Positions 28,015 to 44,682 of a stretch of 64,000 nucleotides of DNA are shown here, piece after piece; within the stretch, counting starts at the first letter, position 1, and every line of letters begins with the position of its first letter. A program made the position numbers and the translations under genes. Below the pieces are notes generated by a model. It was not told where the DNA came from. It ran no database searches and saw only the letters and a program-made list of their open reading frames with translations. The DNA is from Rhizobium sp. (GTDB lineage: Bacteria > Pseudomonadota > Alphaproteobacteria > Rhizobiales > Rhizobiaceae). Location of the stretch: positions 1-64,000 of the forward strand of contig JAQGJP010000032.1 in the NCBI GenBank assembly GCA_028290545.1. The letters run 5' to 3'.

Positions 28015-28061
28015 AAACACGCACTCCCCTATTTGATTTCTGCTTTCGGTAATTCTCTATG

Positions 28062-28075
28062 CGTACATCTGTTCG
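28062..28075 (-). promoter_or_regulatory. Operator A (IclR-type inverted repeat) of the ten-gene operon
   Basis: CGTACATCTGTTCG on the plus strand matches the recurrent CGnACATTTGTnCG at all arm positions. Read on the minus strand it is followed by CATA as at operators D and E. It sits 48-61 nt upstream of the binding-protein ATG. Confidence 0.65.
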
Positions 28076-28211
28076 CAAATATGATCAGCAAAATATCCAG
28101 ATGACAAGATGAAATTCGCTATTTTACCGGCGCATCTGCCTAAAATTGCTCAAATCCCTGATTCTGTTATATCTTAAGTTCGTAGAATAACTTTTAGAAA
28201 AATTTTGATAG

Positions 28212-28225
28212 CGTACATTTGTACG
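28212..28225 (+). promoter_or_regulatory. Operator B (IclR-type inverted repeat) of gabD-IclR
   Basis: CGTACATTTGTACG: the arms CGTACA/TGTACG are perfect inverted repeats around TT. It lies 66-79 nt upstream of the aldehyde dehydrogenase ATG, in the 276-nt divergent region that also holds operator A. Confidence 0.65.
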
Positions 28226-28290
28226 AAAATGGTGACAAGCCTGCGTTGATGCTGTAACCAGAAGACAAAGCCACCAATCGAGGAATATCC

Positions 28291-29745
28291 ATGAACATCG
28301 TCAATGACCCCCTGCTTTTCCGTCAAGCCTTCTATGCCGACGGGCAGTGGCACGCGGGCGGCGCGGATGTGATCAAGGTCGTCAATCCGGCCACGGGCCA
28401 GGTGATCGGCACCGTACCGAAGGCGACCGTCGAGGACACGCGGGCGGCGATCGAAGCCGCCCACGCCGCCTTTCCGGACTGGTCGACGCGTCCAGCCAAG
28501 GAACGGTCGGCGATCATGCGCAAATGGTTCGAGCTGATCGTTGCAAACGCCGACGATCTCGGCCGGTTGCTGACTGCCGAACAGGGTAAGCCCTTTCCGG
28601 AAGCGCGCGGTGAGATCCTCTATGGCGCTGCCTTCTTCGAATGGTTCGCCGAGGATGCCAAACGAATTTCCGGCGAAACGATCCCCGCCCCGACCCGCGA
28701 CAAGCGCATGCTGGTAATCCGCCAGCCGATCGGCGTCTGCTCGGCGATCACGCCGTGGAATTTCCCGATGGCGATGATCCCGCGCAAGGCTGGACCGGCG
28801 ATCGCCGCCGGCTGCACGATGGTACTGAAGCCCGCCAGCGCCACGCCGTTTTCGGCGCTTGCGCTCGCCGAACTGGCCGAACGCGCGGGCCTTCCCAAGG
28901 GCGTGTTCAACGTCGTGACCGGCGCCGCCGGTGTGGTCGGCGAGGAACTGGTGACCAATCCGCTGGTCCGCAAGATCACCTTCACCGGCTCGACCGAAGT
29001 CGGTCGCGAACTGATGGCCAAGGCCGCGAAAACCATCAAGAAAGTCTCGCTCGAACTCGGTGGCAATGCACCGCTGATCGTCTTCGACGACGCGACGCTG
29101 GAAACCGCCGTACAGGGCGCGATGGCCTCTAAGTTTCGGAACATGGGCCAGACCTGCGTCTGCGCCAACCGCATCTACGTGCAGGATGGCATATACGATG
29201 CTTTCGTTGCGCGCTTCTCCGAGGTTGTCGCCGCCATGAAGGTCGGCGACGGCATGGAAGAGGGCGTCATCCAGGGTCCGCTCATCGATGAAGCCGCCGT
29301 TTCCAAGGTCGAAGAGCATGTGCGCGATGCGCTGGATGGCGGCGCGCGCATCGTCACAGGCGGCAAGCGGCATGCGCTCGGCGGCACATTCTACGAGCCG
29401 ACCGTGATCGCCGATGCCAAGCAATCGATGAAGATCGCCCATGAGGAAACGTTCGGGCCGGTGGCGCCGATCTTCCGCTTCACGGACGAAAAGGAAGCGA
29501 TCCGGCTTGCCAACGACACGGAGTTCGGCCTTTCGGCTTATTTCTTCACCCGCGACCTCGCCCGTACATGGCGCGTGGCGGAAGCGCTTGAAGTCGGCCA
29601 GATCGGCATCAACACCGGCATCACCGCCTTCGAAGGCGCGCCGTTCGGCGGCGTCAAGGCGTCCGGCATCGGTCGCGAGGGCTCGCATCACGGCATCGAC
29701 GAATATCTGGAGCTGAAATACCTCTGCATGGGTGACATGAATTGA
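28291..29745 (+). CDS. gabD: NAD(P)-dependent succinate-semialdehyde dehydrogenase family
   Basis: Aldehyde dehydrogenase of 484 residues. The N terminus (DPLLFRQAFYADGQW), TPWNFPMAMIPRKAGPA, KPASATPFSALALAEL, the Glu in LELGGNAP and the catalytic Cys in GQTCVCANR are typical of the GabD branch. It oxidises a semialdehyde (succinate or glutarate type) to the acid. An alpha-ketoglutarate-semialdehyde substrate is an alternative given the neighbouring amino-acid oxidase and DapA-family genes. It is co-transcribed with the IclR gene, whose TTG overlaps its stop. Confidence 0.92.
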   Translation: MNIVNDPLLFRQAFYADGQWHAGGADVIKVVNPATGQVIGTVPKATVEDTRAAIEAAHAAFPDWSTRPAKERSAIMRKWFELIVANADDLGRLLTAEQGKPFPEARGEILYGAAFFEWFAEDAKRISGETIPAPTRDKRMLVIRQPIGVCSAITPWNFPMAMIPRKAGPAIAAGCTMVLKPASATPFSALALAELAERAGLPKGVFNVVTGAAGVVGEELVTNPLVRKITFTGSTEVGRELMAKAAKTIKKVSLELGGNAPLIVFDDATLETAVQGAMASKFRNMGQTCVCANRIYVQDGIYDAFVARFSEVVAAMKVGDGMEEGVIQGPLIDEAAVSKVEEHVRDALDGGARIVTGGKRHALGGTFYEPTVIADAKQSMKIAHEETFGPVAPIFRFTDEKEAIRLANDTEFGLSAYFFTRDLARTWRVAEALEVGQIGINTGITAFEGAPFGGVKASGIGREGSHHGIDEYLELKYLCMGDMN

Positions 29746-30575
29746 GAACGCAATCCGACCCAACTGACGAGTCGGACAATGACGAGATCGCCATCGACAG
29801 CGGCGATCCCGGCCCGGCGGGCCGCGATTATGTGAATGCACTGGCACGCGGCCTTGAGGTGATCAAGGTTTTCACCCGCTACACGCCAAAAATGACGCTC
29901 AGCGAGGTTGCCCAGGCGACCGGCATGACGCGCGCCACCGTGCGGCGCTTCCTGCTGACGCTGGCGCATGAGGGCTATGTCGAGATATCGGGCAAGCATT
30001 TCAGCCTGCGGCCGAAGATCCTCGAACTCGGATTTTCGGCGCTGTCGTCTATGGATCTCTGGGACGTCGTGCAGCCCGTCATCAACGATCTCTCGGAGAA
30101 ACTCAGCGAAAGCTGCTTTGCCGCCGTGCTTGACGGGGAATCCGTGATTTACGTGGCGCGCGCCACCCCGAACAATCGCCGGGTCAATGTCGGCATCTCG
30201 ATCGGCAGCCGCGTGCCCGCGCATTGCGTCTCGACCGGGCGGGTATTGCTGGCCTCCCTGCCTGAGGATCAGCTGCACCAGTATATCGAGACCATGACGC
30301 TGACAAAATTCACGCCGAACACCATCACTTCCCGGGTGCAGCTCCGCGACGTGCTGGAAGAGGTGCGGCGGCAAGGCTGGTCGATCGTCGATCAGGAACT
30401 CGAAGTGGGCCTGCGCTCACTGTCGGTGCCGATCCGCGACGGCAGCGACCAGATCGTGGCAGCGCTGAATGTCTGCTGCCCATCGACGCGCATCAGCCTG
30501 GAAGAAATGAAAACGCGCATTTTGGCGAATACGTTCGAAGCGTCGCGCAACATCACGCTCGCCCTGCACTGCTGA
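29742..30575 (+). CDS. IclR-family transcriptional regulator (PcaR/PobR type)
   Basis: A 277-residue regulator with an N-terminal winged helix (MTLSEVAQATGMTRATVRRFL, about residues 49-69) and a C-terminal effector domain (SLSVPIRDGSDQIVAALNVCC). The start is TTG at 29742, overlapping the gabD stop (TTGA); the next possible start, GTG at DYVNALARG, would remove 30 poorly conserved residues. It is a close paralogue of the regulator at 39477 (shared RPKILELGFSAL and VVQPV-NDL). Likely binds the CGnACATTTGTnCG sites nearby. Confidence 0.92.
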   Translation: MRTQSDPTDESDNDEIAIDSGDPGPAGRDYVNALARGLEVIKVFTRYTPKMTLSEVAQATGMTRATVRRFLLTLAHEGYVEISGKHFSLRPKILELGFSALSSMDLWDVVQPVINDLSEKLSESCFAAVLDGESVIYVARATPNNRRVNVGISIGSRVPAHCVSTGRVLLASLPEDQLHQYIETMTLTKFTPNTITSRVQLRDVLEEVRRQGWSIVDQELEVGLRSLSVPIRDGSDQIVAALNVCCPSTRISLEEMKTRILANTFEASRNITLALHC

Positions 30576-30577
30576 TT

Positions 30578-31723
30578 TCAGGCAAACCGTGTCGGCGTGT
30601 AATCCGTCATGTCCTCGCCGGGATCGCGGCCGAGCACGATATTCGCCACCAGCTGCGCCGAGAACGGACCGAGCGTGTAGCCGGCGTCGCCCGGAATGGC
30701 GAAATGCAGCCCCGGCACGGACGGCACGGGTCCCAGAACACCCTTGCCATCGACCGACGTATTGACCCCTGCCCATGTCCTGATGATCCTGAGAGGCGCG
30801 ATCTGCGGGGCGATGTGGCGCGCCAGCGTGGCATTGGCAATCAAGCTGTCCAACCGCACGGTCGGATGATCGCGGTCGCCGACGATATCGGCCGGCCAGC
30901 CGCCGCCGATGACGATCTGGCCGCTGGAAAACTGCTTGAGCGTGATCATCCGGTCAGCATGCTGGACGAGGTGGCCGATCATCGGCGCCGTCGCCTCGGT
31001 GATGTTCATATGCAGCGGTTCGGCGCGTGCCGGGATATGAACACCCAGCTGAGTGGCCAGCGGCGTGGTGCCGGCGGCGGTGGCCAGCACCAGCGTCCCG
31101 GCGCGCAAAGTCGCCCCCCTGGCGGTCTCCACCCGGAACCCGCTGCTTTCTTGTGAGAGCGCGCTAACCGCCTCGCCTTCCCGGAGCACGACACCCAGTC
31201 CGATCAGCCAGCGGCGGATCGCGGCATTGCATTTCAGCGGATTGAGCTTGCCCTCGTCGAGGCAGATTTCCGCGCCGATCACCGCCGGGCCGAGATAGGG
31301 CGCCATGCGGTCGAGATCGGCGCGATCGAGCATCTCGACCTCGAGCCCCAGCTCACGTTCGCGCGCCGCCTTGATGCGGAGAAAGGCGAGCTGGTCCTCT
31401 GTCTCGGCGACCATCAGGCCGCCATTCTTCCTGATTTCGAAATCGGCTCCGAGCTTATTCTCGAACGCCTGCCAGAAACGCACCGCCTTCGGGTAAAGCG
31501 GCAATTGCCGCTGCATGCCCGGCACGTTTTGGGGATAGAGCTGCATGAAGCGGCTCTGCATCTGCACATGCAGGCTGCCGGCATTGGCGTTCGAGCCACC
31601 GATACGGCCGTCATCGATCAGCATCACGCTACGACCGCCTTCGGCTAGAAAACCCGCGACACAACTGCCGACGACACCGCCACCGACGACGATCACGTCG
31701 ATATCGGACGCCGCTCCGCTCAC
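30578..31723 (-). CDS. FAD-dependent oxidoreductase, DadA/OoxB/LhpB-like subunit
   Basis: DAO-family flavoprotein of 381 residues with VVGGGVVGSCVAGFL as FAD loop, SNANAGSLHVQ near residue 50 and GDAGYTLGPFSAQLVANIVLG at the C terminus. The start is GTG at 31723, overlapping the stop of the large-subunit gene (GTGA). It pairs with the Fe-S/FAD subunit encoded just upstream, like the beta subunits of octopine/nopaline oxidase, HcnC and D-hydroxyproline dehydrogenase. It probably oxidises the C-N bond of an N-substituted or D-amino acid at the membrane. Confidence 0.88.
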   Translation of the reverse strand: MSGAASDIDVIVVGGGVVGSCVAGFLAEGGRSVMLIDDGRIGGSNANAGSLHVQMQSRFMQLYPQNVPGMQRQLPLYPKAVRFWQAFENKLGADFEIRKNGGLMVAETEDQLAFLRIKAARERELGLEVEMLDRADLDRMAPYLGPAVIGAEICLDEGKLNPLKCNAAIRRWLIGLGVVLREGEAVSALSQESSGFRVETARGATLRAGTLVLATAAGTTPLATQLGVHIPARAEPLHMNITEATAPMIGHLVQHADRMITLKQFSSGQIVIGGGWPADIVGDRDHPTVRLDSLIANATLARHIAPQIAPLRIIRTWAGVNTSVDGKGVLGPVPSVPGLHFAIPGDAGYTLGPFSAQLVANIVLGRDPGEDMTDYTPTRFA

Positions 31724-33408
31724 GGCTGGCCACCACCGGCGAGATCCTCGATCCGCACCGGACGGATCGGCACGCGCGGTGCAAAGCCGGAATATTCGTC
31801 GCGTTCGTATCCGAGCCTCGCGGCCATCAGCGTATCCAGCACCGGCGCGCAATAACGGCCCTGGCACCGCCCCATGCCGACGCGGGTCTGGCGCTTGACG
31901 GCGCCGATCATCGTCAGATCCTCCGATAGGGCATCCTCGATCTGGCCGAAGCTCACCTCTTCGCAGCGGCAGACCAGGGTCTCGCGATCGGCGAGCGAGG
32001 CGTGATAGCCGCTGAACGCATAGAGCTGCCAGAGTACAGACTGGAAGCGCCGATGACGAGCGAGATCAGCGCTCGCTTTGGCAATATCCGTCTGGACGAT
32101 TTTGCCCAGACTTTTCGCCGCTGCGGTTCCAACCAGCGTGCCTTCCGCCAGCGCCGCCCGAGCGCCGCCAAGGCCCGTGCAGTCACCGAGCGCATAAAGT
32201 CCGCTGACGCTCGTCTGGCCGGATGCATCGCGCCGCGTCACCAATTGCCTGCGGACCGGATCGAAATCATGATGACAGCCGAGCCCGCGCAGCAATTCAT
32301 TAGCCGGCTCAAAGCCGTAGCCGAGACATAGCGTATCGACCTCGAATGTCCTGACGGAACCGCTGCCATCTGCCGGACCGGTCGTAACTTTCAGGCCATC
32401 GCCGCTCTTCTCGACCTTGCGGACCACCTCCCCATGGACCATGCCGGTCCCGGCTCTCATGCGCTTCCAATGATAGACAATACCGTTGCGAACCAGAGAC
32501 GGCGAGGCCGAAAGCATGGACAAAACCGTGGAAAAATTGCCGATGCCGGGCTGTTTCGCCGCCTCGATCACCGCCACCACATCGCTGCCGGCATCGATCA
32601 GTTCTGACGCAAGCTGCAGGTTGAGCGGGCCGTTGCCGGCGATCAGCACCCGTTTGCCGGGCGACCGCCGCGCCGTGCGCCAGAGCGTCTGGGCGGCCCC
32701 CGTGGTCATTACCCCCGGCAGCGTCCAGCCCGGCACCGGCCAGCCGCGTTCGTAGGCACCGGTTGCGACGACGGCTGCCTTCGGATGATAGCGAACAGTG
32801 CCATTAGGGCCGCTCGCGGCAAATTCCAGCGGCGCGAACGCTCCCCAGACGGTGACGCCGCTGCGAATGGTCACGCCGAGCGAACGGGCCGTCTCGATCA
32901 GATCAGCGCCTTCCCTGTGCTGCGCGTCCGGCGCGGCAATGTCCTCGCCCCTGACATCAGGCTGCTTGAAATATTGCCCTCCCGGCTGCGAGCGCTCATC
33001 GAGCACCACGACCTCGGCGCCCGCGCGACGGGCGGCAATCGCCGCCGACAGGCCGCCTGGTCCCGCGCCGATGACCAGCACTTCCGGGCTTTCGACCCTG
33101 ATATCCTGGATCGTTGCTGGCGGCCGGTAATCGGATACAGGCGGCAGCGGCCGGCCATGCGCTTCGGCGCGGACGACATGCGGTCCCGAAACCTTGGTCA
33201 TGCAGGCCCGCTGATTCGGCCTGCCGTCGACCTCCACGAGACAATCCTGACAGACGCCCATGCCGCAGAACATGCCGCGATCGACCCCACCGGCCGTCGT
33301 CCGGAAGCTCTTGACGCCTGCCGCTGTCAGGCTTGCGGCCAGGCTTTCTCCATGCCGGGCCACGATTTTCCGGCCGTCAAATTCGATCGTTTCCGTCTTG
33401 CTGTCCAT
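31720..33408 (-). CDS. [2Fe-2S]/FAD/BFD oxidoreductase, OoxA/HcnB-like subunit with fused ferredoxin domain
   Basis: A 562-residue protein. The N-terminal Fer2_4 domain has a Cys cluster in FCGMGVCQDCLVE plus Cys in RAC (C-x4-C-x2-C-x12-C). The middle is a pyridine-nucleotide-disulphide-type FAD domain (VIGAGPGGLSAAIAARR). The C terminus is a BFD-like [2Fe-2S] domain with VCRCEEV and GRCQGRYC. It thus fuses the small ferredoxin subunit to the OoxA/LhpE-type subunit. ATG 33408 is preferred; a GTG at 33429 is possible. Partner of the gene at 30578-31723. Confidence 0.88.
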   Translation of the reverse strand: MDSKTETIEFDGRKIVARHGESLAASLTAAGVKSFRTTAGGVDRGMFCGMGVCQDCLVEVDGRPNQRACMTKVSGPHVVRAEAHGRPLPPVSDYRPPATIQDIRVESPEVLVIGAGPGGLSAAIAARRAGAEVVVLDERSQPGGQYFKQPDVRGEDIAAPDAQHREGADLIETARSLGVTIRSGVTVWGAFAPLEFAASGPNGTVRYHPKAAVVATGAYERGWPVPGWTLPGVMTTGAAQTLWRTARRSPGKRVLIAGNGPLNLQLASELIDAGSDVVAVIEAAKQPGIGNFSTVLSMLSASPSLVRNGIVYHWKRMRAGTGMVHGEVVRKVEKSGDGLKVTTGPADGSGSVRTFEVDTLCLGYGFEPANELLRGLGCHHDFDPVRRQLVTRRDASGQTSVSGLYALGDCTGLGGARAALAEGTLVGTAAAKSLGKIVQTDIAKASADLARHRRFQSVLWQLYAFSGYHASLADRETLVCRCEEVSFGQIEDALSEDLTMIGAVKRQTRVGMGRCQGRYCAPVLDTLMAARLGYERDEYSGFAPRVPIRPVRIEDLAGGGQP

Positions 33409-33536
33409 TGCATTTCCAGTGTCTGACACGCCATATCCATCCAGCCAAAGGCGGCTTAATCCGAAAAAATCACCGATGAAAAAGGAATTCTTGGCGGAAG
33501 CGCCGTTGCGCGATCTGGCATCTTATGTTCTCTCTG

Positions 33537-33550
33537 CGAACTTCTGTACA
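33537..33550 (+). promoter_or_regulatory. Operator C in the oxidase/SDR divergent region
   Basis: CGAACTTCTGTACA matches the consensus with two deviations (positions 6 and 14). It lies 57 nt upstream of the SDR ATG and 129 nt upstream of the oxidase ATG, so it may serve both. Confidence 0.55.
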
Positions 33551-33606: not shown

Positions 33607-34362
33607 ATGTCGCTTTTTCTTGAAAACAAGGTTGCCTTGGTTACCGGCGGTTCGCGCGGGCTCGGTGCCGCCATCATCAAATGCCTGGCGAGCCAAGGCG
33701 CGATCGGCGCGGCGGTCGACCGCGAACCGCCTGTTTCACCGCACAGTTTGCCCAATGGATTCATCGCGATCAAGGCGGACGTGACCGACGAGCAATCGGT
33801 GAAAGCGGCCGTCGAGCAGACGCTCGAACGCTTCGGCCGGCTGGATATCGTGATTGCCAATGCCGGCGTCGTGCCGCCGTGGTCGGAGACAATAAACCTC
33901 GATCTCCGCAACTACGATGAGGTCATGGCGATCAATGGCCGCGGCGTGCTGGCAACCATCAAGCATGCTGTCGCGCCGCTTATGGAGACGCGCGGAACGG
34001 TGGTGGTCATGGGTTCCATCAACTCGATACTGGCCCACCCCAGACAATTGGCCTACACCGCCAGCAAGCACGCGGTTCTCGGCATTCTTCGTGCCACGGC
34101 GCTCGATCTCGGACGCCACGGAATCCGTGTCAATGGCGTGGCACCGGGTCCGATTGCCACCGATGCGCTACTTGGACGCATCAAGGCGCGGGCAGCGACC
34201 GGACCATCCGAGACAGAGGCAATTGCCGCGCTCGAAGGACAGACCGCCCTGGGGCGGCTGGCGACCCAGGACGAAGTGGCGAACACCGTGGCTTTCCTTG
34301 CCGGGCCGATGGCAAGCGGCATCACCGGGCAGCTCATCAGGGTCGACGCCGGCATGGCATAA
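33607..34362 (+). CDS. SDR-family oxidoreductase
   Basis: Classical SDR of 251 residues: VTGGSRGLGAAI, NAGVVPPW, catalytic Ser in VMGSINS, YTASK and ITGQLIRVDAGMA. The ribosome site GGAGAG is 6 nt upstream. It is transcribed alone, divergent from the FAD/Fe-S oxidase and 209 nt before the amino-acid importer. A hydroxy-acid or hydroxy-amino-acid dehydrogenase role is plausible. Confidence 0.9.
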   Translation: MSLFLENKVALVTGGSRGLGAAIIKCLASQGAIGAAVDREPPVSPHSLPNGFIAIKADVTDEQSVKAAVEQTLERFGRLDIVIANAGVVPPWSETINLDLRNYDEVMAINGRGVLATIKHAVAPLMETRGTVVVMGSINSILAHPRQLAYTASKHAVLGILRATALDLGRHGIRVNGVAPGPIATDALLGRIKARAATGPSETEAIAALEGQTALGRLATQDEVANTVAFLAGPMASGITGQLIRVDAGMA

Positions 34363-34452: not shown

Positions 34453-34571
34453 TTGACGAGCGGTCACACACTTGTCAGCTTAATGTGGGCTAAACGGAGC
34501 GGCAGCGCTCCAGCCAATAAACAAATAGGAACAGTCACAATCCGGCAATGTCCGGAACAGGAGGTCATTCC

Positions 34572-35381
34572 ATGCTTCATAAATTGTTGTCGCTCGCATC
34601 GCTTGCGGTCGTTGGAGCCGCGCTCGCGATTGTTCCCGCCCAGGCGCGCTCGCTCGACCAGATCATCACGGCCGGCACGATCAAGATCGGTGTCAACCCG
34701 AACTTTCCGCCGATGAGTTCCTATGGCGAGACCAACGAATTCCAGGGTTTCGACATCGACGTCGGCAACAAGATCGCCGAGGCGCTCGGCGTCAAGGCCG
34801 AGTTCGTGCCGACGGAAACCGCCCAGCGCGTGCCGTTCCTCGTCGCCGACCAGATCGACATCTCGCTCGGCGCGCTGACCCGCAGCGCCGAACGCGCCAA
34901 GTTGATCGATTTCACCGTACCGCTGCACACCGAATCCATGGCCGTGCTGACGACTGACAAGGTCACTGCCGCCAAATGGACTGACCTCGACACCGACAAA
35001 GTCACGCTGGTCAACATGCGCGGCAACTGGTCGGTCGACTTCCTCAAGGAAAAGCTGCCGAAATCCAAGGTCCTGCTGGTTGAAAGCAACGCCGACACGG
35101 TGCGCGCCATTGCCCAGGGCCGCGCCGACGCGCTGATCGAGAATGTCGATTTCTTCATGTCCTTCACCAAGAACTATCCGGATGTGAAGTGGAAGACACT
35201 GAACGACACGATCTTCACCAATTATGACAGCATCGGCGTCTCCAAGGGCAATGACGGCCTGCGGATGTTCCTCAACACGCTGCTCTACGACATGCATTCC
35301 AGCGAGTATATCAACACGACCTGGACCAAGTGGTATGGCGCACCGATGCTGAAGCCGGTCGTTCCGAACCCGTTCTTCTGA
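34572..35381 (+). CDS. Polar amino-acid ABC transporter substrate-binding protein
   Basis: Periplasmic family 3 binding protein of 269 residues. The start at 34572 follows AGGAGGT. The Sec signal is MLHKLLSLASLAVVGAALAIV with cleavage after AQA. The mature part begins with LDQIITAGTIKIGVNPNFPP and has GFDIDVGNKIAEALG, LGALTRSAERAKLIDFT and GNDGLRMFLNTLLYDM. Family members bind polar amino acids and opines. It leads a four-gene importer operon. Confidence 0.94.
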   Translation: MLHKLLSLASLAVVGAALAIVPAQARSLDQIITAGTIKIGVNPNFPPMSSYGETNEFQGFDIDVGNKIAEALGVKAEFVPTETAQRVPFLVADQIDISLGALTRSAERAKLIDFTVPLHTESMAVLTTDKVTAAKWTDLDTDKVTLVNMRGNWSVDFLKEKLPKSKVLLVESNADTVRAIAQGRADALIENVDFFMSFTKNYPDVKWKTLNDTIFTNYDSIGVSKGNDGLRMFLNTLLYDMHSSEYINTTWTKWYGAPMLKPVVPNPFF

Positions 35382-35397
35382 TTGTTGTAACTCTCCA

Positions 35398-35451
35398 GCG
35401 ACTCGGAGATATCTCTCCGGGTCGCCAGGGCATTATCGTTCTGAAATGCCC
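35398..35451 (+). other. Two stem-loops between binding-protein and permease genes
   Basis: The first hairpin (35398-35425) has a 12-bp stem GCGACTCGGAGA/TCTCCGGGTCGC with one G-T pair and loop TATC. The second (35428-35451) is GGGCATT/AATGCCC with a 10-nt loop. No U-tract follows, so they are probably mRNA-stabilising or attenuating elements. Confidence 0.55.
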
Positions 35452-35478
35452 GGCGGCCAAAGATGAGGGGCAGACCGT

Positions 35479-36833: not shown

Positions 36834-37557
36834 AGTCAAAAACCTGTCCGCGTCCTATGGACACTACAAGGTGCTGGAAAATGTCAGCCTGTCGATCGAG
36901 AAGGGTGAAATCGTCAGCCTGATCGGCTCCTCCGGTTCAGGCAAGAGCACGTTGCTGCGCGTGCTGATGGGCCTGCTGAAGCCATCGGCCGGGCATGTCG
37001 AGATCGATGGCCTGTCAGTCAACTACGGTTCCCGCGCTAGCCTGAAATCCATCCGCGACCGCATGGCGATCGTCTTCCAGCAGTACAATCTGTTCCAGAA
37101 CATGGATGTGCTCCGGAACGTCACCATCGCTCCGGTCGAGATCAAGAAGCGCCCGAAAGCGGATGTCGATCGCGAGGCGCGTGCGATCCTCGACCGCGTC
37201 GGCCTGTCGGCCAAGCTCAAATCCTATCCCGACCAGCTCTCGGGCGGCCAGCAGCAACGTGTGGCGATTGCCCGGGCGCTGGCGCTGAAGCCAGAAATCC
37301 TGTTGCTCGATGAAGTCACGGCGGCGCTCGACCCTGAACTCGTCAACGAAGTGCTCGATACCGTCGCCCAACTGGCGCGCGAAGGCATCACCATGCTGAT
37401 CGTCAGCCACGAAATGGGCTTCGTTCGCGAAGTGTCATCGCGGGTGGTGATGATGGACAAGGGCCAGATCGTCGAAGTCGGCACGCCCAAGGAAATTTTC
37501 GAACATCCGAAGGAAGTCCGCACTGGCGAATTCGTCAGCAAGATCCTGCGGCACTGA
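36820..37557 (+). CDS. Amino-acid ABC transporter ATP-binding protein (GlnQ/HisP family)
   Basis: ATPase of 245 residues: [16 protein letters not shown] (Walker A), [15 protein letters not shown] (signature), [15 protein letters not shown] (Walker B, with Val where Pro-Thr is usual as DEPTSALD), VSHEMGF (switch His). The start is TTG at 36820 with GGAGAAA upstream. It completes the importer; its end is 5 nt from the convergent antitoxin gene. Confidence 0.94.
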
Positions 37558-38061: not shown

Positions 38062-38075
38062 AGAGAAACGAAGAA

Positions 38076-39215
38076 TCAAGTCTTCGGCAGGAACGGCGTC
38101 AGGTCGATATCGAAGGGTGCGGGCTTTCCCTGCACCAGATTGGCAACGATGCGCGCAGCGACCGGCCCGGCGGTAAAGCCCATCCACGGAAAGAAATTGA
38201 CGAAGAAACCCGGTGATTTGCGGATTTCGCCGAGGATCGGCTTCCAGTCATCCGTGCCGTTGACGATCGCCGCCCAGGTGCGGATCACGCGGATATCCTT
38301 GAGGGCCGGCACCACCGATAGCGCTACGGCCATGTTCCGGCGCAGCGATTCCGGATTGGCGACCGGCGTGCCATAGGGACCGATATTGGCTTCCCAACCG
38401 CCGCCGATCAGCAGCGAGCCGACCTGGTTCTGTTTCAGCGTCAGCTTGTCGCTGGCGCAATAGAGCAAATGCGGGATCAGCGGCCCGACGCGCTCGGTGG
38501 CGCTGACCTGGATCGGGAAGCCCTGCACATCGCCAAGCTCGATCCCCAGCAAAGCGGCGATCTTGCCAGCATCCGAGCCGGCGGCATTGACGATGCGGTT
38601 GGCGGAGAAGACTCCCTTGCTGGTCGCGACCTCATAGCCCGCCTTGGTGCGTTCGATGCCGAGCACCTGCGTCTGCCGCTCGATGCGGGCGCCCAGCCTC
38701 TGCGCTGCCCTTGCGAAAGCCGGCGCGACCGCGAATGGATTTGCCTTGCCTTCATCGGGACAGAAGGCACCGCCGATCATCTGGTCGGAAACGTAGGGCG
38801 CGATGCGCTGGATGTCGGCGCGATCGAGGATCTGTATTTCCAGCCCCTGCCCGCGCTCGTATGCAGCTTTGCGCTCGATCGCCTGCATATCCGCAGGCGT
38901 CCGCGCCACCAGCAAACCGCCGCGCAGCCTGACTTCAAGATCGGTGCCGAGTTCGTCGCCAAGCGACCGCCACATGTCGATGGATTTTGCCAGCAATCCG
39001 ACCGTGGACGCATAATTTGCCGCCCAGCCCTCGCCATAGCGCACGAACGGATCGTGCGGGATCTGCGCATGCAGGCTGCCGGCATTGGAACCGGAAGCGA
39101 GCGTGTTGAGATCGAAGCGTTCCAGAACCGTGACATCGACCCCATCGGCGGCCAGATAGTAGGCCGTCGCACAACCGGCCAGCCCGCCGCCGATCACAAT
39201 CACATCCGCCATCAT
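38076..39215 (-). CDS. FAD-dependent oxidoreductase, DadA-like (lone subunit)
   Basis: DAO-family flavoprotein of 379 residues with VIGGGLAGCATAYYL, SGSNAGSLHAQIP and a C-terminal GFTAGPVAARIVANLVQG. It is clearly paralogous to the product of 30578-31723 (shared SNAGSLH and EGKANPF/EGKLNPL motifs). No large Fe-S subunit is adjacent, so it may work alone or share the subunit encoded at 31720-33408. It has its own promoter with operator E 49 nt upstream. Confidence 0.9.
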   Translation of the reverse strand: MMADVIVIGGGLAGCATAYYLAADGVDVTVLERFDLNTLASGSNAGSLHAQIPHDPFVRYGEGWAANYASTVGLLAKSIDMWRSLGDELGTDLEVRLRGGLLVARTPADMQAIERKAAYERGQGLEIQILDRADIQRIAPYVSDQMIGGAFCPDEGKANPFAVAPAFARAAQRLGARIERQTQVLGIERTKAGYEVATSKGVFSANRIVNAAGSDAGKIAALLGIELGDVQGFPIQVSATERVGPLIPHLLYCASDKLTLKQNQVGSLLIGGGWEANIGPYGTPVANPESLRRNMAVALSVVPALKDIRVIRTWAAIVNGTDDWKPILGEIRKSPGFFVNFFPWMGFTAGPVAARIVANLVQGKPAPFDIDLTPFLPKT

Positions 39216-39263
39216 TCAATCCACTGCCAGCCACGATAGGCTTGGTATTCCTTGTTCACTATG

Positions 39264-39296
39264 ATAACATTTGTTCGCATAACGCACTTCTGAAAT
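39264..39296 (-). promoter_or_regulatory. Operator E, tandem IclR-type sites
   Basis: E1 is ATAACATTTGTTCG (39264-39277, outer CG replaced by AT). E2 starts 19 bp later with the half-site CGCAC (39283). The joining GTTCGCATAACG is identical to that in operator D. It lies just upstream of the lone FAD oxidoreductase gene. Confidence 0.55.
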
Positions 39297-39383: not shown

Positions 39384-39397
39384 TGTACAAACGTGCG
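39384..39397 (+). promoter_or_regulatory. Operator F upstream of the second IclR gene
   Basis: TGTACAAACGTGCG (reverse CGCACGTTTGTACA) matches the consensus with two deviations. It is 80-93 nt upstream of the regulator ATG and suggests autoregulation. Confidence 0.5.
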
Positions 39398-39476: not shown

Positions 39477-40289
39477 ATGGCTACGGAAGCAAAAATGAAA
39501 AAGCAGGTCGAGGACGTGATTGTCGAGGAAGAAAATGCGCGTGACTTTGTCACATCCTTTGCCCGGGGCCTGGACGTCATCCGCACATTTACACGTTCCA
39601 AGCCGCGGATGACACTGAGCGAGGTCGCCGAACAGGCCGACATGAACCGCGCCGCCGCCCGTCGCTTCCTGCTGACGCTGGTGCGCGAGGGGTATGCGGA
39701 GCTCGATGGCAAGTTCTTCAGCCTGCGCCCGAAGATCCTTGAACTCGGCTTTTCGGCGCTGGCATCGATGAGCCTGCCGGAAGTCGTCCAACCAGTGCTC
39801 AACGACCTCGCCGAGAAACTGCAGGAATCCTGTTTTTGCGTCGTGCTCGACGGGGATTCCACTGTCTATATCGCCGCCGCCAAATCCAAGCGCGTCATCA
39901 ATGCCTCGATCGAACTCGGCAGCCGCGCGCCGGCCTATTGCATGTCGTCGGGCCGGGTCCTGCTCGGCAGCCTGAAGGCGGAAGAGCTGGATTCAGCGCT
40001 TGAGAATATCAAGCTCGAACAGATCACCGACAATACCGTGACCTCGAAGCTGAAGTTGAGAAGCGCCATCCGCGATGCCCGCACCAAAGGCTATGCGATC
40101 GTCGACCAGGAATACGAGATCGGCCTGCGTTCGATATCCGTGCCGGTGGCCGACCGCGGCGGAACCGTGATCGCGGCGCTCAATGTCTGCTGCCCGAGCC
40201 CACGCTACACGATGGAAGAAATGCTGCAGAAGGTGCTGCCCGCATTGCTCGACAGTTCCAGCCAGATCACGGTGTCGCTGCCGCACTGA
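39477..40289 (+). CDS. IclR-family transcriptional regulator (second paralogue)
   Basis: A 270-residue PcaR/PobR-type regulator with winged helix MTLSEVAEQADMNRAAARRFL (about residues 44-64) and effector domain ending in SISVPVADRGGTVIAALNVCC. It is paralogous to the protein at 29742-30575 over its whole length. The recognition helices differ (NRAAARRF versus TRATVRRF), so binding preference may differ slightly. Convergent with the DapA-family gene, separated by a bidirectional terminator. Confidence 0.93.
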   Translation: MATEAKMKKQVEDVIVEEENARDFVTSFARGLDVIRTFTRSKPRMTLSEVAEQADMNRAAARRFLLTLVREGYAELDGKFFSLRPKILELGFSALASMSLPEVVQPVLNDLAEKLQESCFCVVLDGDSTVYIAAAKSKRVINASIELGSRAPAYCMSSGRVLLGSLKAEELDSALENIKLEQITDNTVTSKLKLRSAIRDARTKGYAIVDQEYEIGLRSISVPVADRGGTVIAALNVCCPSPRYTMEEMLQKVLPALLDSSSQITVSLPH

Positions 40290-40313
40290 CCGAAATTCTT
40301 CCCTGGAAAATGA

Positions 40314-40339
40314 AAATGAGCGCCTTTCGGCGCTCATTT
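40314..40339. terminator. Bidirectional rho-independent terminator
   Basis: A perfect 11-bp stem AAATGAGCGCC/GGCGCTCATTT with loop TTTC lies between the convergent IclR and DapA-family genes. T-rich flanks on both strands make it usable in both directions. Confidence 0.8.
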
Positions 40340-40364
40340 GCTTGGGAGCGTTATGCTTTTGCGC

Positions 40365-41309
40365 TCAGGCCGCGGCGCTCTTGTCGAGATCGGCCAGGAG
40401 TTGGTCCAGTTCGGCGATCACGCCTGACAAAACCTTGAGACGCGCCTTGCCTTCATCACCGAGAGACGAAAATGTCGTCAGCGGCGGACGCACATCACCC
40501 ATGGGATAGCCGGCGAGAGCAACCAGTGCCTTCGAATAGCACTGGTGCCCATAGGTCGGATGACCCTCGGCGATCGTGTGTTCGATCTTGGTGATATGCT
40601 TCTGGATTTTCTTGGCGTCATCGATACGTCCCGCCTCCAGCAGCGCCCAGAGCTTCTGCGTGGCGCGCGGAATGTAATTTCCGAACGGATCGACATAGCC
40701 GATGGCGCCGAGCAGGAAGGATTCGACGATACGCTCGCCGGCAAACACCTTCATCTCGCCCTTCGATTCCTGGATGACATCGTAGACCCGACCGACATCG
40801 GTAGAGGCTTCCTTGATATACTGGATTTGTTCGAATGCCTTGGTCAACCGCGCCACGAGCTTGGCCGACATATCGACATTCGACGTGAACGGATTGTTGT
40901 AAAGCATGATCGGCAGTTTGGTCGCCGCGCAGATCGCCTTGTAGTAGCCGAAGATCTCGTCCTCGGTCGGCGTATAGTAATATGGGGGAACGATCATCAG
41001 GCCATCGGCGCCGAGATCTTCCGCCATTTTCGCGTAAGCTGCGGCCCGCGGCGTGTAGGCATTCATCGAACCGACCAGAACATGCATGCGCCCATTCACA
41101 TGCTTGACCGTTGCCTCGACATAGGCGCGGCGCTCTTCATCCGTCAGCGTCAGGAACTCGCCCGTCGTGCCGAGGATGATGACGCCGGGAACGCCGCATT
41201 CGATCTGCCAATCGAGAAATGCTTTCAAGGCATTGTAGTCGATGCTCTCTCCGCCCGGTGTGAAAGGGGTTACCGTGACTGTGTAACTACCCCGAAACTC
41301 GATACCCAT
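40365..41309 (-). CDS. DapA-family (beta/alpha)8 lyase/aldolase/deaminase
   Basis: A 314-residue class I aldolase-superfamily protein with Schiff-base Lys166 in IQYIKEAST, Tyr137 in MLYNNP, ILGTTGEFLTLT loop and VPPYYYTPTEDEI. It differs strongly from the DapA-family protein at 21273. Possible activities include keto-deoxy-acid aldolase or pyrroline-hydroxycarboxylate deaminase, the latter because of the D-amino-acid/imino-acid oxidase genes and the semialdehyde dehydrogenase. It is monocistronic, with operator G over its promoter. Confidence 0.9.
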   Translation of the reverse strand: MGIEFRGSYTVTVTPFTPGGESIDYNALKAFLDWQIECGVPGVIILGTTGEFLTLTDEERRAYVEATVKHVNGRMHVLVGSMNAYTPRAAAYAKMAEDLGADGLMIVPPYYYTPTEDEIFGYYKAICAATKLPIMLYNNPFTSNVDMSAKLVARLTKAFEQIQYIKEASTDVGRVYDVIQESKGEMKVFAGERIVESFLLGAIGYVDPFGNYIPRATQKLWALLEAGRIDDAKKIQKHITKIEHTIAEGHPTYGHQCYSKALVALAGYPMGDVRPPLTTFSSLGDEGKARLKVLSGVIAELDQLLADLDKSAAA

Positions 41310-41403
41310 TGTGGCGCTTCTCCTGATCTTTCATATCTTTTTAGACAGACCGCGTGACGTCGGCGCCTGCTTGTCGGCGAACAGCGAATTCGCGCGATTT
41401 AAT

Positions 41404-41436
41404 CGCACATTTGTTCATAATGCGCACGTTGTCAAT
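41404..41436 (-). promoter_or_regulatory. Operator G and promoter of the DapA-family gene
   Basis: G1 is CGCACATTTGTTCA (41404-41417, one deviation); a half-site CGCAC follows exactly 19 bp later (41423). On the minus strand a perfect TTGACA -35 lies at 41435-41430, and 17 nt on, the -10 region (AAATGT) falls inside G1. Binding would block the promoter, which suggests repression. Confidence 0.6.
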
Positions 41437-41612
41437 ATCGGCAGCCAAACTTATAGGAAGACCGGAAACTATGGCAAAGGCGCACTTGAACCGATTGCCG
41501 TTGCTGGCGAAGGCCAGCCGGATATGCTTTTCCCAACTGCATCCAGCTTGCCAGTCGACGGTCTGGTGGCAAAACTTCGCACTGTCGTGCGATACCGCAC
41601 ATTGCGAGCCTC

Positions 41613-42380
41613 TCAGCGGATATAGGTGGCGCCGTTGAAATCGATCGTGCCGCCGGTCATGTGGCGGCAGGTACCGCTGGCAAGAAAGCCGATCAACGAG
41701 CCGATCTCCTCCGGCGGCACCCATTCGCCCATGGCAAGTCCGGCCGTCAGCTTGTCGATCCCGCCGAGCACCGCCGCCGATTCCTCCGACATGCGGGTCT
41801 TCACCACACCCGGCGCGATGATATAGGCAAGGATGTTCTGGTCGGCATAGGTGCGCGCAATCGTCTGGGTCGCCGCCTTGATCGCGCCCTTTGAAGCGGC
41901 ATAGGCAATCGTCTTCGGGCTTGATGACCCGCGCTGCGCATTCCAGCTGACGATGGTGATGATGATGCCGCCGCCATACGCCTTATAATGATGCACAGCG
42001 CCGCGCATCAGGTCGGCCGGAGCACGGACATTGACCTGCAGCGTTTTCTCCCAGACCTCGTCCCATTCCGCCTCGTCTTCCTCGATGCCGCCGGCATTGA
42101 GGAAAATCGCCGCATTGTTGACGAGAACATCGATCCGGCCGCGCCAGGCGACCGCATCCGCCCACAGGCGGCGCACCTCCTTCTGCTGGCCTAGATCGGC
42201 CTGAACGATCAGATAACGGGCGGGATCAACACCCTCAAGCGCCGCCTCGACGCCGGCACGATCGCCGCCATAATGGGCTACCAGATTGGCGCCCATGCCG
42301 ATCAACGTCTTCGCTGTCTCGGCGCCGATCCCCTTGGATGCGCCGGTCAGCAACACCGTCTTGCCCTCGAGAGAAAACAT
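41613..42380 (-). CDS. SDR-family oxidoreductase
   Basis: Classical SDR of 255 residues: LTGASKGIGAE, NNAAIFLN, catalytic Ser in TIVSWNA, YAASK, and MTGGTIDFNGATYIR at the end. It follows no other gene and is divergent from the 3-hydroxyacyl-CoA-dehydrogenase-like operon, sharing operator H. The 303 nt between its stop and the DapA-family ATG hold operator G and no gene. Confidence 0.9.
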   Translation of the reverse strand: MFSLEGKTVLLTGASKGIGAETAKTLIGMGANLVAHYGGDRAGVEAALEGVDPARYLIVQADLGQQKEVRRLWADAVAWRGRIDVLVNNAAIFLNAGGIEEDEAEWDEVWEKTLQVNVRAPADLMRGAVHHYKAYGGGIIITIVSWNAQRGSSSPKTIAYAASKGAIKAATQTIARTYADQNILAYIIAPGVVKTRMSEESAAVLGGIDKLTAGLAMGEWVPPEEIGSLIGFLASGTCRHMTGGTIDFNGATYIR

Positions 42381-42419
42381 GCATCGATCCTTTCCGATTT
42401 CATTGCGGTTTTCAATATT

Positions 42420-42433
42420 CGAACATTTGTGCG
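42420..42433. promoter_or_regulatory. Operator H in the SDR/dehydrogenase divergent region
   Basis: CGAACATTTGTGCG is a full match to the recurrent motif and identical to operator I. It lies 40 nt upstream of the SDR ATG and 78 nt upstream of the dehydrogenase ATG. Confidence 0.65.
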
Positions 42434-42510
42434 ATTTTCAACTGTTTTCTGTTGCGCGCTTTCAAGGGGGCGGACTAAAGTGGCTGGAAACGTTTGGAGA
42501 ATGAAACGGT

Positions 42511-43473
42511 ATGACCACAGCCAATGCAGGACTGGAAAAAATCGCGATCATCGGTTCCGGCTCGATCGGCGCGGGCTGGGCGATCGTCTTTGCGCGCGCC
42601 GGGTTCGACGTCACGCTCCATGATGTCGCGGCGGCGCAACTCGATAAGGCGGAAACGCTGATCGGCGAACGGCTGGCGGAGCTTGCGACCTATTGCCTGC
42701 TCGGCAACCAGCCAGCGGAGATCGCCGCCAGAATTCGCTATATGGAAAATCTCGAACAAGCTGTTGCCAATGCCGATCTGGTGATCGAGGCCGCACCGGA
42801 AATTCTCGATCTCAAGCGCGATCTTTTTTCCCGGCTGATATCCGCAACCCAGGATCATGCGATTCTTGCTTCATCCTCGTCGGCGCTGACGACGACAACC
42901 ATCGCTGCCGATCTTGCCGGCCGGCATCGCTGTCTCGTCGCCCATCCCGGCAATCCACCCTATCTCTTGCCTGTCGTCGAGCTTGTACCGGCAGATTTCA
43001 CAGCACCGGACATAATACAATCGGCGCAGAAGATCTTCGAGGATGCCGGCATGTCAGTGGTGACGCTGGGACGCGAGGTCGAGGGTTTCGTGTTCAACCG
43101 CCTGCAGGGTGCGGTGCTGCGCGAGGCCTATTGTCTGGTCCGCGATGGCGTGGTTTCCGTCGATGATCTCGACAAAATCATCCGCGACGGGCTCGGCATG
43201 CGCTATGCCTTCATCGGCCCGTTCGAGACCAGCGATCTCAACGTACGGGGCGGCACCGCAGCGCATGCGGCGCGGATGGCTGCTGCCTATGAACGGATGG
43301 GGGCCGAGCGCGGCCAGCACGACCCCTGGACACCGGATCTCGTCGCCCGGGTTGCCGAACAACGCCGCGAGAAACTGCCGCTGCAAGACTGGGAGAAGCG
43401 CGTTGCCTGGCGCGACCGCCGGCTGATGGCGCTCAACCGGTTGAAGCAGGACCTTCGACAAACTGATGGCTGA
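42511..43473 (+). CDS. 3-hydroxyacyl-CoA dehydrogenase-family protein (L-carnitine/L-gulonate dehydrogenase-like)
   Basis: NAD-dependent dehydrogenase of 320 residues with IIGSGSIGAGWAIVFARAG (NAD loop), EAAPEILDLKRDLF, ASSSSALTTT (catalytic Ser region), LVAHPGNPPYLLPVVELVP (catalytic His) and GFVFNRLQGAVLREAYCLV. This one-domain-plus-dimerisation layout is that of lambda-crystallin, L-gulonate 3-dehydrogenase and carnitine dehydrogenase, which oxidise free 3-hydroxy acids. It leads an operon with the AcoX-like kinase and the GcvP pair. Confidence 0.88.
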   Translation: MTTANAGLEKIAIIGSGSIGAGWAIVFARAGFDVTLHDVAAAQLDKAETLIGERLAELATYCLLGNQPAEIAARIRYMENLEQAVANADLVIEAAPEILDLKRDLFSRLISATQDHAILASSSSALTTTTIAADLAGRHRCLVAHPGNPPYLLPVVELVPADFTAPDIIQSAQKIFEDAGMSVVTLGREVEGFVFNRLQGAVLREAYCLVRDGVVSVDDLDKIIRDGLGMRYAFIGPFETSDLNVRGGTAAHAARMAAAYERMGAERGQHDPWTPDLVARVAEQRREKLPLQDWEKRVAWRDRRLMALNRLKQDLRQTDG

Positions 43474-44596
43474 GCCGCGCCGCATCGGGCTGATCGTCAA
43501 TCCGATCGCCGGCATCGGCGGGCCGCTGGCCGCGCGGGGAAGCGACCGGTTCGCCGATCTGGCAGACGCACAGAGACAGGGCGGCATTCCAGTTGCCGAA
43601 GAACGGGCGAAGAGAGCGCTGCGGCGATTGAAGCAGCAGGCCGGCGATGTCGAAATCCTTGCCGCTTCCGGACCCATGGGCGCCTCAGCGGCACTGGCGG
43701 CCGGATTTGATGCCGCTCTGCTTGACGGCCCCTATGCTCGAATTTCGAACGCCAACGACACCAAAACGGCTGCTGAAGCGATGCTGCAAAAAGGCGTCGA
43801 ATTGATTCTGCTCGCCGGTGGCGACGGCACGGCACGCGACATTTTCAGCGTGGTCGGCGATCGGGTGCCGCTCGTCGGCGTCCCCACCGGCGTGAAGATG
43901 CATTCCGCCGTCTTCGCGCTCAGCCCGGAGGCTGCTGGCGAAACAGTGGCGCTTGCAGCGGGCCGAAACCACGCTACGCGGCTGGCGGAAATCATGGATG
44001 CCGACGAGGCTGAACTCGCGGCTGGCCGACCATCCGCTCGGCTGTTCGGCTATGCCAAGACGCCGGCCTTGCCCCGTCTGTTGCAGGTCGCCAAGGCGGC
44101 ACGGCCGGATGGCGGCGAGGCGGCGATCGAGGCACTTGGACGAAAGCTGGCGCAAGAGGCCAAAACCGACCAGTTGATCATCCTCGGCGCCGGCACGACG
44201 ATGGCCCTGATCAAGCGTGCCTTCGGATTTGCTGGAACCCTGCTGGGCGTCGATGCGGTTCTTAAAGGCGAGGTCATTGCCCTGGATGCCGATGCCGCAA
44301 CGCTGGAAAAACTTTGCCAAAACCATTCCGAGGTTTCGCTCATCGTAGGCATCGTCGGCGGCCAGGGCTTCGTGTTCGGTCGTGGTAATCAGCAGATTTC
44401 GCAGGAAGTTCTGCGAGCCGTTAAAACGAATGATCTCAGGATCGTCGCGACGCGCGAAAAGCTGCTCGCGCTGCCGGGCACGGAACTCAGGGTCGATACC
44501 GGCGATATCGCGCTCGATCGGACACTCGAGGGCTACAGGCGCATCGACACCGGCCCCAGTGATACGATGATGATGCGGTTGCGTGGCGGATTTTAG
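43466..44596 (+). CDS. ATP-NAD kinase-family protein, AcoX-like
   Basis: A 376-residue protein with the NAD-kinase-type nucleotide motif LLAGGDGTARDI (GGDGT at residues 118-122), an N-terminal GLIVNPIAGIGG typical of this branch, and a C-terminal beta domain (LIVGIVGGQGFVFGRGNQQIS). AcoX-like proteins occur in acetoin and related operons but their substrate is not established. It overlaps the dehydrogenase gene by 8 nt and precedes the GcvPA gene; no acetoin dehydrogenase genes are present. Confidence 0.85.
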   Translation: MAEPRRIGLIVNPIAGIGGPLAARGSDRFADLADAQRQGGIPVAEERAKRALRRLKQQAGDVEILAASGPMGASAALAAGFDAALLDGPYARISNANDTKTAAEAMLQKGVELILLAGGDGTARDIFSVVGDRVPLVGVPTGVKMHSAVFALSPEAAGETVALAAGRNHATRLAEIMDADEAELAAGRPSARLFGYAKTPALPRLLQVAKAARPDGGEAAIEALGRKLAQEAKTDQLIILGAGTTMALIKRAFGFAGTLLGVDAVLKGEVIALDADAATLEKLCQNHSEVSLIVGIVGGQGFVFGRGNQQISQEVLRAVKTNDLRIVATREKLLALPGTELRVDTGDIALDRTLEGYRRIDTGPSDTMMMRLRGGF

Positions 44597-44631
44597 CGCA
44601 TGGATTTCAGACTTTCCGCGCTTGTCTATTG

Positions 44632-44645
44632 CGAACATTTGTGCG
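44632..44645 (+). promoter_or_regulatory. Operator I upstream of gcvPA-like gene
   Basis: CGAACATTTGTGCG, identical to operator H, is 38-51 nt upstream of the ATG at 44683; a weak half-site CGTAG starts 19 bp downstream. It implies a separate promoter for the GcvP pair inside the operon. Confidence 0.65.
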
Positions 44646-44682
44646 AATTTCGTAGATAACTTTGGATAGTCGAAAGATTTTC

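What the first reader, a model, noticed from the sequence alone, without database searches (positions are those of the whole stretch)
28015..44682. One 14-bp operator motif in nine intergenic regions ties region 18-47.6 kb into a single regulon
The inverted repeat CGnACATTTGTnCG occurs, exact or with one to two deviations, before the ten-gene CUT1 operon (28062), gabD-IclR (28212), the oxidase/SDR pair (33537), the amino-acid importer (34420, 34439), the lone FAD oxidase (39264), the second IclR gene (39384), the DapA-family gene (41404), the SDR/dehydrogenase pair (42420) and the GcvP pair (44632). Seen directly: the copies and their promoter positions. Known: IclR regulators such as KdgR bind short inverted repeats. 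Inferred: the two encoded IclR proteins bind them, and the genes share one inducer.
Basis: partly seen in the sequence, partly recalled or inferred. Interest (0 to 1): 0.78.

Follow-up and report, generated by a model that had tools for sequence, protein, structure and literature searches.

The report
PcaU-type operators tie catabolic cluster together
A run of neighbouring transport and breakdown genes carries the same DNA switch in front of its operons, the switch is conserved before the same genes in other bacteria, and it is of a kind already known for the PcaU/PobR branch of the IclR regulators, two of which are encoded in the cluster.

Summary
The motif is real, intergenic and concentrated in this cluster, but it is only part of the operator: the unit is a three-box array of 25 bp, CGnACA-N2-TGTnCG-N5-CGnACA, as described for PcaU and PobR. 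A profile trained only on other genomes scores 8 operators here at 18.4-30.7 bits; the best of 380 kb of control DNA from the same genome is 14.9. All 10 genome-wide hits with a related profile, at E up to 10, are these sites (150 of 737 candidates scored). Of 8 intergenic regions with a gene start between 28.0 and 47.6 kb, 7 carry a strong site; the eighth is inside the importer operon. The same operators precede orthologous genes in Rhizobium, Mesorhizobium, Parvularcula, Burkholderia, Reyranella and Conexibacter loci. Corrections: seven intergenic regions, not nine; 34439 is the third box of 34420; 33537 departs by three bases; 39384 is weak; KdgR is the wrong model. Binding by the two encoded IclR proteins is very likely but not shown; shared inducer and activation are inferred. 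A new regulon of a known kind, over an unidentified pathway.

The parts
28051..28075 (-). operator before the CUT1 transporter operon (inner 14-mer 28062-28075); third box weak (AGAATT)
   Evidence: 23.7 bits; counterpart with third box CGAATA at L018:8302, Rhizobium sp. RU36D
28212..28225 (+). operator before gabD-IclR1: two boxes, with a conserved (A/G)GTGACAA at the place of box 3
   Evidence: exact 14-mer; 18.4 bits, but 12.4 (14.0 on the other strand) with distant-only training; not among the hits; 14-mer kept in L018, L019, L020, L021, the GTGACAA in the first three
33526..33550 (-). three-box operator between the divergent oxidase (OoxA-like, name recalled) and SDR genes
   Evidence: 25.1 bits; same site in L018 and L020 and a like one in L025
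   Evidence: only 0-mismatch match in the genome; TTGAC 6-8 nt after box 3 in 5 of 5 aligned loci
39253..39288 (.). four-box operator (two overlapping three-box sites) before the lone FAD oxidase, in the same intergenic region as the IclR2 start
   Evidence: 24.8 and 21.4 bits; counterpart L089:1364-1399 in RU36D, not used in training
39384..39397 (.). weak candidate site before the second IclR gene
   Evidence: 13.0 bits as 14-mer, 9.6 as three-box, within reach of background
41404..41428 (+). three-box operator before the second DapA-family gene
   Evidence: 24.7 bits; identical 25-mer at L088:1334 in RU36D, not used in training
42409..42433 (-). operator between divergent SDR and 3-hydroxyacyl-CoA dehydrogenase-like genes
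   Evidence: 30.7 bits, best in window; counterpart L088:2385
44632..44656 (+). three-box operator before the GcvPA-GcvPB pair (start codon read by me as ATG 44683)
   Evidence: 28.2 bits; counterpart L088:4602
29742..30575 (+). IclR1, PcaR/PcaU/PobR subfamily
   Evidence: TIGR02431 304.1 bits, cut-off 284.75; HTH_IclR and IclR_C
39477..40289 (+). IclR2, PcaR/PcaU/PobR subfamily, 55% identical to IclR1
   Evidence: TIGR02431 302.8 bits; HTH_IclR and IclR_C
18293..28020 (-). CUT1-type operon: solute-binding protein, two permeases, ATPase, class-III aminotransferase, DapA-family, LysA-like decarboxylase, two SDR (nine genes named)
28291..29745 (+). succinate-semialdehyde-dehydrogenase-like (GabD)
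   Evidence: TIGR01780 715.9 bits, cut-off 646.35
30578..33429 (-). FAD oxidase (DAO) and sarcosine-oxidase-alpha-like subunit
33607..34362 (+). SDR dehydrogenase
34548..37557 (+). polar amino-acid-type ABC importer (solute-binding protein, two permeases, ATPase)
38076..39215 (-). lone FAD oxidase (DAO)
40365..41309 (-). DapA-family lyase
41613..42380 (-). SDR dehydrogenase
42511..44596 (+). lambda-crystallin-like 3-hydroxyacyl dehydrogenase and NAD-kinase-fold protein (called AcoX-like here; that name is recalled)
44683..47612 (+). split P-protein pair GcvPA-GcvPB, a second set besides a full-length gcvP elsewhere in the genome

Best explanation
The motif is the core of a PcaU/PobR-type operator read by the two IclR paralogues encoded in the cluster. 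The full site is three boxes of alternating direction, CGnACA-N2-TGTnCG-N5-CGnACA, 25 bp, with box 3 starting 19 bp after box 1, about two helical turns (shown as sequence). It stands in front of each operon, as I delimit them, between 18.3 and 47.6 kb (shown as sequence). That IclR1, IclR2 or both bind it is inferred. They most likely switch the import, oxidation and cleavage enzymes of one catabolic pathway together when the compound or an early product is bound (inferred). They are probably activators, as PcaU and PobR are recalled to be, because at the importer promoter box 3 lies 6-8 nt before a conserved -35-like TTGAC (inferred, weaker).
For: Count of gapped palindromes in 80 intergenic regions from 14 loci of other genomes, window excluded: CGNACA-N2-TGTNCG comes first, 9 regions in 8 loci, while the best of each of 20 block shuffles is 2 or 3; second is GTNCGC-N3-GCGNAC (4 regions), the other pairing of the same half-sites. 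Third box: 23 of 42 sites (5 of 9 in the window) have at least 4 of 5 fixed bases at +19; other offsets from 10 to 39 have 0-4 of 42, except +12, which overlaps the site itself. Profile from 33 sites of other genomes: 18.4-30.7 bits here, best of 380 kb control 14.9. Distant-only training on 18 of those: 7 of 8 operators at 19.2-29.2, best control 14.7. Own genome: all 10 profile hits at E up to 10, at 7 of the 8 operators, lie here. Three-box pattern: 4 of 6 matches with at most 1 mismatch. Unseen contigs of Rhizobium sp. RU36D: sites before DapA, SDR/HCDH, GcvPA and DAO at matching places. IclR subfamily and half-site. Placement: 7 of 8 intergenic regions with a gene start, 0 of 2 convergent ones.
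Against: No binding or expression data. The best E-value is only 0.0133, and the gabD operator 28212 is not among its hits; 28212 lacks box 3 and falls to background with distant-only training. With the 14-mer profile alone the separation is not clean: a control site scores 17.3, above two of the six best window sites counted by 14-mer (34420 at 15.5; 39384 and 39264 lower still). 39384 before IclR2 is weak. 60 of 80 intergenic regions in other genomes have no site within 1 mismatch, many being gaps between co-directional genes; L026, with an IclR 57% identical, has none in its locus. No -10 element is conserved at a fixed distance in the importer alignment. The genome is 81% complete, and one search scored 150 of 737 candidates.
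Confidence: 0.86

Rival explanations
1. Two overlapping regulons (not exclusive with the main reading): IclR1 and IclR2 read the same boxes but prefer different arrangements, two-box sites at gabD and the CUT1 operon and three- or four-box sites at the importer, oxidase and DapA genes, and answer to different ligands.
For: Box 3 has 4-5 of 5 fixed bases at 33526, 34420, 39264, 41404 and 44632, and 1-3 of 5 at 28062, 28212, 39384 and 42420. The recognition helices differ (TRATVRR and NRAAARR). In Rhizobium sp. RU36D the IclR1 and IclR2 parts lie on different contigs.
Against: Loci whose genome has a single such IclR carry both kinds of site (L023, L024, L025), and IclR2-like helices (L023, L024, L027, L050) go with the same motif.
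Confidence: 0.3
2. The IclR proteins act mainly as repressors of the cluster (not exclusive with the main reading of the sites).
For: Many IclR proteins repress (recalled); the sites 44-56 bp before the GcvPA, SDR, CUT1 and DAO starts could cover promoters.
Against: The subfamily model passed is that of PcaR/PcaU/PobR, of which PcaU and PobR are activators (recalled); at the importer the operator ends 6-8 nt upstream of a TTGAC in 5 of 5 aligned loci.
Confidence: 0.3
3. The repeats are conserved promoter or other elements unrelated to the IclR proteins.
For: No binding data; site centres lie 44.5-121.5 bp from the start codons, where promoters lie.
Against: Box pitch of 19 bp with alternating direction and the PcaU/PobR half-site; best-scoring sites of the genome all here; co-occurrence with these IclR genes in 10 of 10 genomes searched, which were however chosen because they hold the IclR.
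Confidence: 0.05
4. Chance clustering of a degenerate 14-mer.
For: The raw 14-mer count exceeds shuffles only moderately and the 14-mer is barely enriched genome-wide.
Against: All 8 strong clusters are intergenic where 8% is intergenic; conservation at orthologous promoters.
Confidence: 0.01

Closest known systems
PcaU and PobR of Acinetobacter baylyi (IclR family) and their operators
   Same: Half-site CGnACA/TGTnCG; GTNCG-N5-CGNAC pairing plus an additional external half-site (PMC8222616, passages seen); the subfamily model is passed; Arg at the positions that I map to PobR Arg56 and Arg60.
   Different: No pca or pob gene among the family matches of the cluster; the targets are two importers, FAD oxidases, PLP enzymes and a split GcvP. 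The best conserved pair here is the inward one, CGnACA-N2-TGTnCG.
Three-box IclR sites and tandem sites 18-22 nt apart (Suvorova and Gelfand 2021, PMC8222616)
   Same: That paper predicts three-box sites for 32 orthologous groups and tandem sites 18-22 nt apart for 94; the 19-bp pitch found here fits.
KdgR / IclR A/T-rich palindromes
   Same: Same protein family, inverted repeat.
   Different: Different half-site; KdgR and IclR models not passed.

Membership tests
IclR family | HTH_IclR and IclR_C domains | tested here: met
   Both proteins, above gathering scores
PcaR/PcaU/PobR subfamily (by sequence) | TIGR02431 above its curated cut-off | tested here: met
   304.1 and 302.8 bits, cut-off 284.75
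PcaR/PcaU/PobR subfamily (by sequence) | Arg at recognition-helix positions equivalent to PobR Arg56 and Arg60 | tested here: met
   Both proteins (mapped by me with the table seen)
PcaU-type operator | CGnACA/TGTnCG half-sites, three boxes of alternating direction | tested here: met
   Box 3 with 4 or more of 5 bases in 23 of 42 sites, 5 of 9 in the window; the other window sites have it degenerate or lack it
PcaU-type operator | Third box required for binding | not testable with these tools
   Needs gel shifts; reported for PcaU (passage)
beta-ketoadipate pathway regulator | Regulates pca/pob or other aromatic catabolic genes | tested here: not met
   No such gene among the family matches of the cluster
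KdgR | NF011671 above cut-off | tested here: not met
   114.9 and 110.7 bits, cut-off 275
BhcR | NF045644 above cut-off | tested here: not met
   140.2 and 132.4 bits, cut-off 350

The most novel reading that the evidence does not exclude
The operator set marks out a complete, undescribed and horizontally mobile catabolic pathway for an amine- or peptide-like compound. A beta-hydroxyamine is oxidised to a beta-keto amine and cleaved by a split GcvP working with an AcoX-like NAD-kinase-fold partner, outside normal glycine cleavage, and a pair of PcaU-type regulators has been recruited to sense a non-aromatic ligand.
Probability: 0.25. Interest if true: 0.65.

Novelty: new member of a known kind. 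Interest (0 to 1): 0.42.

Why it matters
The operator says which genes belong to one pathway of unknown substrate. It gives a searchable 25-bp mark that already points to possible further members elsewhere (a family-5 solute-binding protein beside M20 and M24 peptidases in Rhizobium sp. RU36D, a DUF885 protein in Parvularcula). That makes the substrate, and the role of the AcoX-like/GcvPA/GcvPB module, testable by genetics. It also adds a conserved case of three-box operators, for which PMC8222616 proposes alternative dimerisation of IclR proteins and asks for experimental validation.

Tried and rejected
Rejected: chance clustering; the KdgR comparison; 34439 as a separate operator. Left undecided: the six exact 14-mer matches elsewhere in the genome. 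All six lie in open frames of 150 aa or more, but so do the four exact window sites, so that test does not discriminate; none of the six is among the profile hits. Three of them carry AACTGT or its complement in the core, which is also seen in one operator of L018.

Led nowhere: naming the substrate. Family models, six searches of solved structures (no match for the AcoX-like protein at E 0.001) and five literature searches for such a gene set or regulon gave no described pathway; two searches were searches on the operator side. One paper was read in part (PMC8222616: abstract and outline, 12 of 19 passages, section 12); the others were seen in listings only. The LysA-like gene has no match in the plasmid collection at E 1e-80.

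Results against the reading: the 14-mer with up to 1 mismatch (168 against 153 for the reversed control), the outward pattern GTNCGNNWWNCGNACA (92/95 against 133/129) and the three-box pattern with up to 2 mismatches (49/41 against 56/57) are not clearly enriched genome-wide; only the best end of the lists is dominated by this cluster (7 of the 90 three-box matches lie here, 4 of the best 6). With the 14-mer profile, 15 control sites in 380 kb reach 12 bits, the best 17.3, against 9 in 18-48 kb and 0 in the other 34 kb of the window. One of the 8 intergenic regions with a gene start in 28.0-47.6 kb has no site (35382-35478, inside the importer operon). Of 20 relatives, 8 have 1-4 profile hits at E up to 0.5, not followed up. 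Six of the 33 training sites have 2 mismatches and were picked by hand from the 8 regions whose best site had 2. Three of the 33 were dropped before building profile R1 (30 sequences). Box orientation was chosen to favour box 3, for all offsets alike but not in the profile.
Full report
What was checked. All ten coordinates in the finding carry the sequences described and all are intergenic. The count alone is only moderately above shuffled sequence (14 strand-matches against a mean of 6.67 and a maximum of 13), so stronger tests were run.

Recovery without the window. I fetched 29 named loci encoding relatives of IclR1, three loci from relatives of the window's genome and plasmid loci, two of which (Paracoccus and Roseicitreum) hold such an IclR. 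The window's genes have orthologues around the IclR gene in Rhizobium sp. RU36D, two Mesorhizobium, Parvularcula, Burkholderia, Reyranella, two Rhodospirillales and Conexibacter loci. I then counted every gapped palindrome of the form xxNxxx-N(0-8)-reverse complement in 80 intergenic regions, which came from 14 of the 16 loci given. CGNACA-N2-TGTNCG came first with 9 regions in 8 loci; the best of each of 20 shuffles (blocks of two bases) was 2 or 3. Second was GTNCGC-N3-GCGNAC, 4 regions in 4 loci, which is the outward pairing of the same half-sites. Not every region has a site: 20 of 80 have one within 1 mismatch, and the locus L026, with a 57% identical IclR, has none.

The unit has three boxes. 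Around 42 sites (9 in the window, 33 elsewhere) a further CGNACA box lies at +19 in 23 of 42; other offsets between 10 and 39 give 0-4 of 42, apart from +12, the site's own overlap. PMC8222616 reports such an additional half-site for PcaU, PobR and HmgR, predicts three-box sites for 32 groups of IclR proteins, and finds tandem sites 18-22 nt apart (passages and section 12 read).

Specificity. A 25-bp profile from the 33 sites outside the window scores eight window operators at 18.4-30.7 bits; apart from these operators and their overlapping readings nothing in the window reaches 13, and the best of 380 kb of control DNA from the same genome is 14.9. With 18 sites from distant genomes only, seven of the eight stay at 19.2 or above while the best control is 14.7; the gabD site falls to 12.4, or 14.0 on the other strand. 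With the 14-mer alone the separation is not clean (a control site scores 17.3). Over the whole genome, all 10 hits of profile R1 at E up to 10 lie at 28.05-44.66 kb and mark 7 of the 8 operators (best E 0.0133; 150 of 737 first-look candidates scored). Of 6 three-box matches with at most one mismatch, 4 are here; of 90 with at most two, 7 are here, and 90 is no more than the reversed control gives. Only the best matches are informative.

Placement. Between 28.0 and 47.6 kb there are 10 intergenic regions of 40 bp or more. Eight contain a gene start; seven of these have a site of 23.7 bits or more, and the eighth is a 97-bp gap inside the importer operon. The two convergent regions have none (best 6.7). 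All eight site clusters of 16 bits or more are intergenic where 8.0% of the sequence is. No hit of 9.5 bits or more lies between 18.3 and 28.0 kb (top 24 listed), so the nine-gene operon there has its site only at the front. Site 39384 before the second IclR gene reaches 9.6 bits and stays a weak candidate.

Prediction on unseen sequence. Profile R1 was run over ten related genomes and stretches around hits were taken. In Rhizobium sp. RU36D sites lie before the orthologues of DapA (the same 25-mer as in the window), SDR/HCDH, GcvPA and the lone oxidase, none of them used in training. In G023, of the window's family, which has an 85% identical IclR2 and otherwise only a 41% relative, sites of 15 bits or more lie before IclR2, SDR/HCDH (this one was in training), GcvPA, the AcoX-like gene, DapA/DAO, an SDR and the importer.

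Who reads it. Both IclR proteins pass the PcaR/PcaU/PobR model, are 55% identical and share the arginines that I map to PobR Arg56 and Arg60. A genome search with IclR1 gave three further matches at 21-29% identity. Four genomes with a single such IclR carry the motif. Binding is therefore very likely but inferred. Which paralogue acts where cannot be told from these data.

How it works. At the importer, box 3 is followed after 6-8 nt by a TTGAC in all five aligned loci, Burkholderia and Parvularcula included. That fits an activator bound beside the -35 region, as PcaU and PobR are recalled to be. No -10 element is conserved at a fixed distance, so this is a lean, not a result.

What it controls. 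Two importers, FAD oxidases of the sarcosine-oxidase type, a class-III aminotransferase, a GabD-like dehydrogenase, two DapA-family lyases, a LysA-like decarboxylase, several SDRs, a lambda-crystallin-like dehydrogenase, an NAD-kinase-fold (AcoX-like) protein and a split GcvP pair. The genome has a full-length gcvP elsewhere, so the pair is accessory. In RU36D operators also stand between an M20/M24 peptidase pair and a family-5 solute-binding protein, and in Parvularcula near a DUF885 gene. An amine- or peptide-like substrate is the best guess; the literature searches made gave no described pathway. The cluster is patchy: 0 of 8 congeners has an IclR1 relative at E 1e-60.

Verdict. The kind of operator is known. 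Whether this regulog is already listed in the supplement of PMC8222616 could not be checked.

Noticed in passing
43466-47612; plasmid loci L053-L057: An NAD-kinase-fold (AcoX-like) gene next to gcvPA-gcvPB also occurs on plasmids of other bacteria: adjacent in at least 7 of 12 plasmid records with the first gene (1 of 16 gcvPA records was not listed); three (Sphingomonas, Gemmobacter, Rhodococcus qingshengii) show no IclR gene within 16 kb in the incomplete gene tables.
   Followed up: partly
44683-47612 and genome contig C91:102450-105218: The genome has a full-length gcvP as well, so the split pair in the regulon is a second, accessory P-protein.
   Followed up: yes
L090:7048-7587 (Rhizobium sp. 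RU36D): The same operators lie between an M20/M24 peptidase pair and a family-5 solute-binding protein, perhaps extending the regulon beyond the cluster.
   Followed up: partly
L095:14318-15024 (Parvularcula): Operator-like sites at three places at the start of, or upstream of, a DUF885 protein gene.
   Followed up: partly
genome contig C63:29444-29460: A perfect outward-type palindrome GTGCGCTTTTCGCAC elsewhere in the genome, possibly the site of another regulator.
   Followed up: no
48089-54506: Hydantoinase A and B genes, an AraC-type regulator and an amidase follow the cluster; no three-box hit of 9.5 bits or more lies there.
   Followed up: no
congener genomes G002-G006 and G008: One to four profile hits each at E up to 0.5 in congeners that lack an IclR1 relative, perhaps sites of other PcaR-type proteins.
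   Followed up: no
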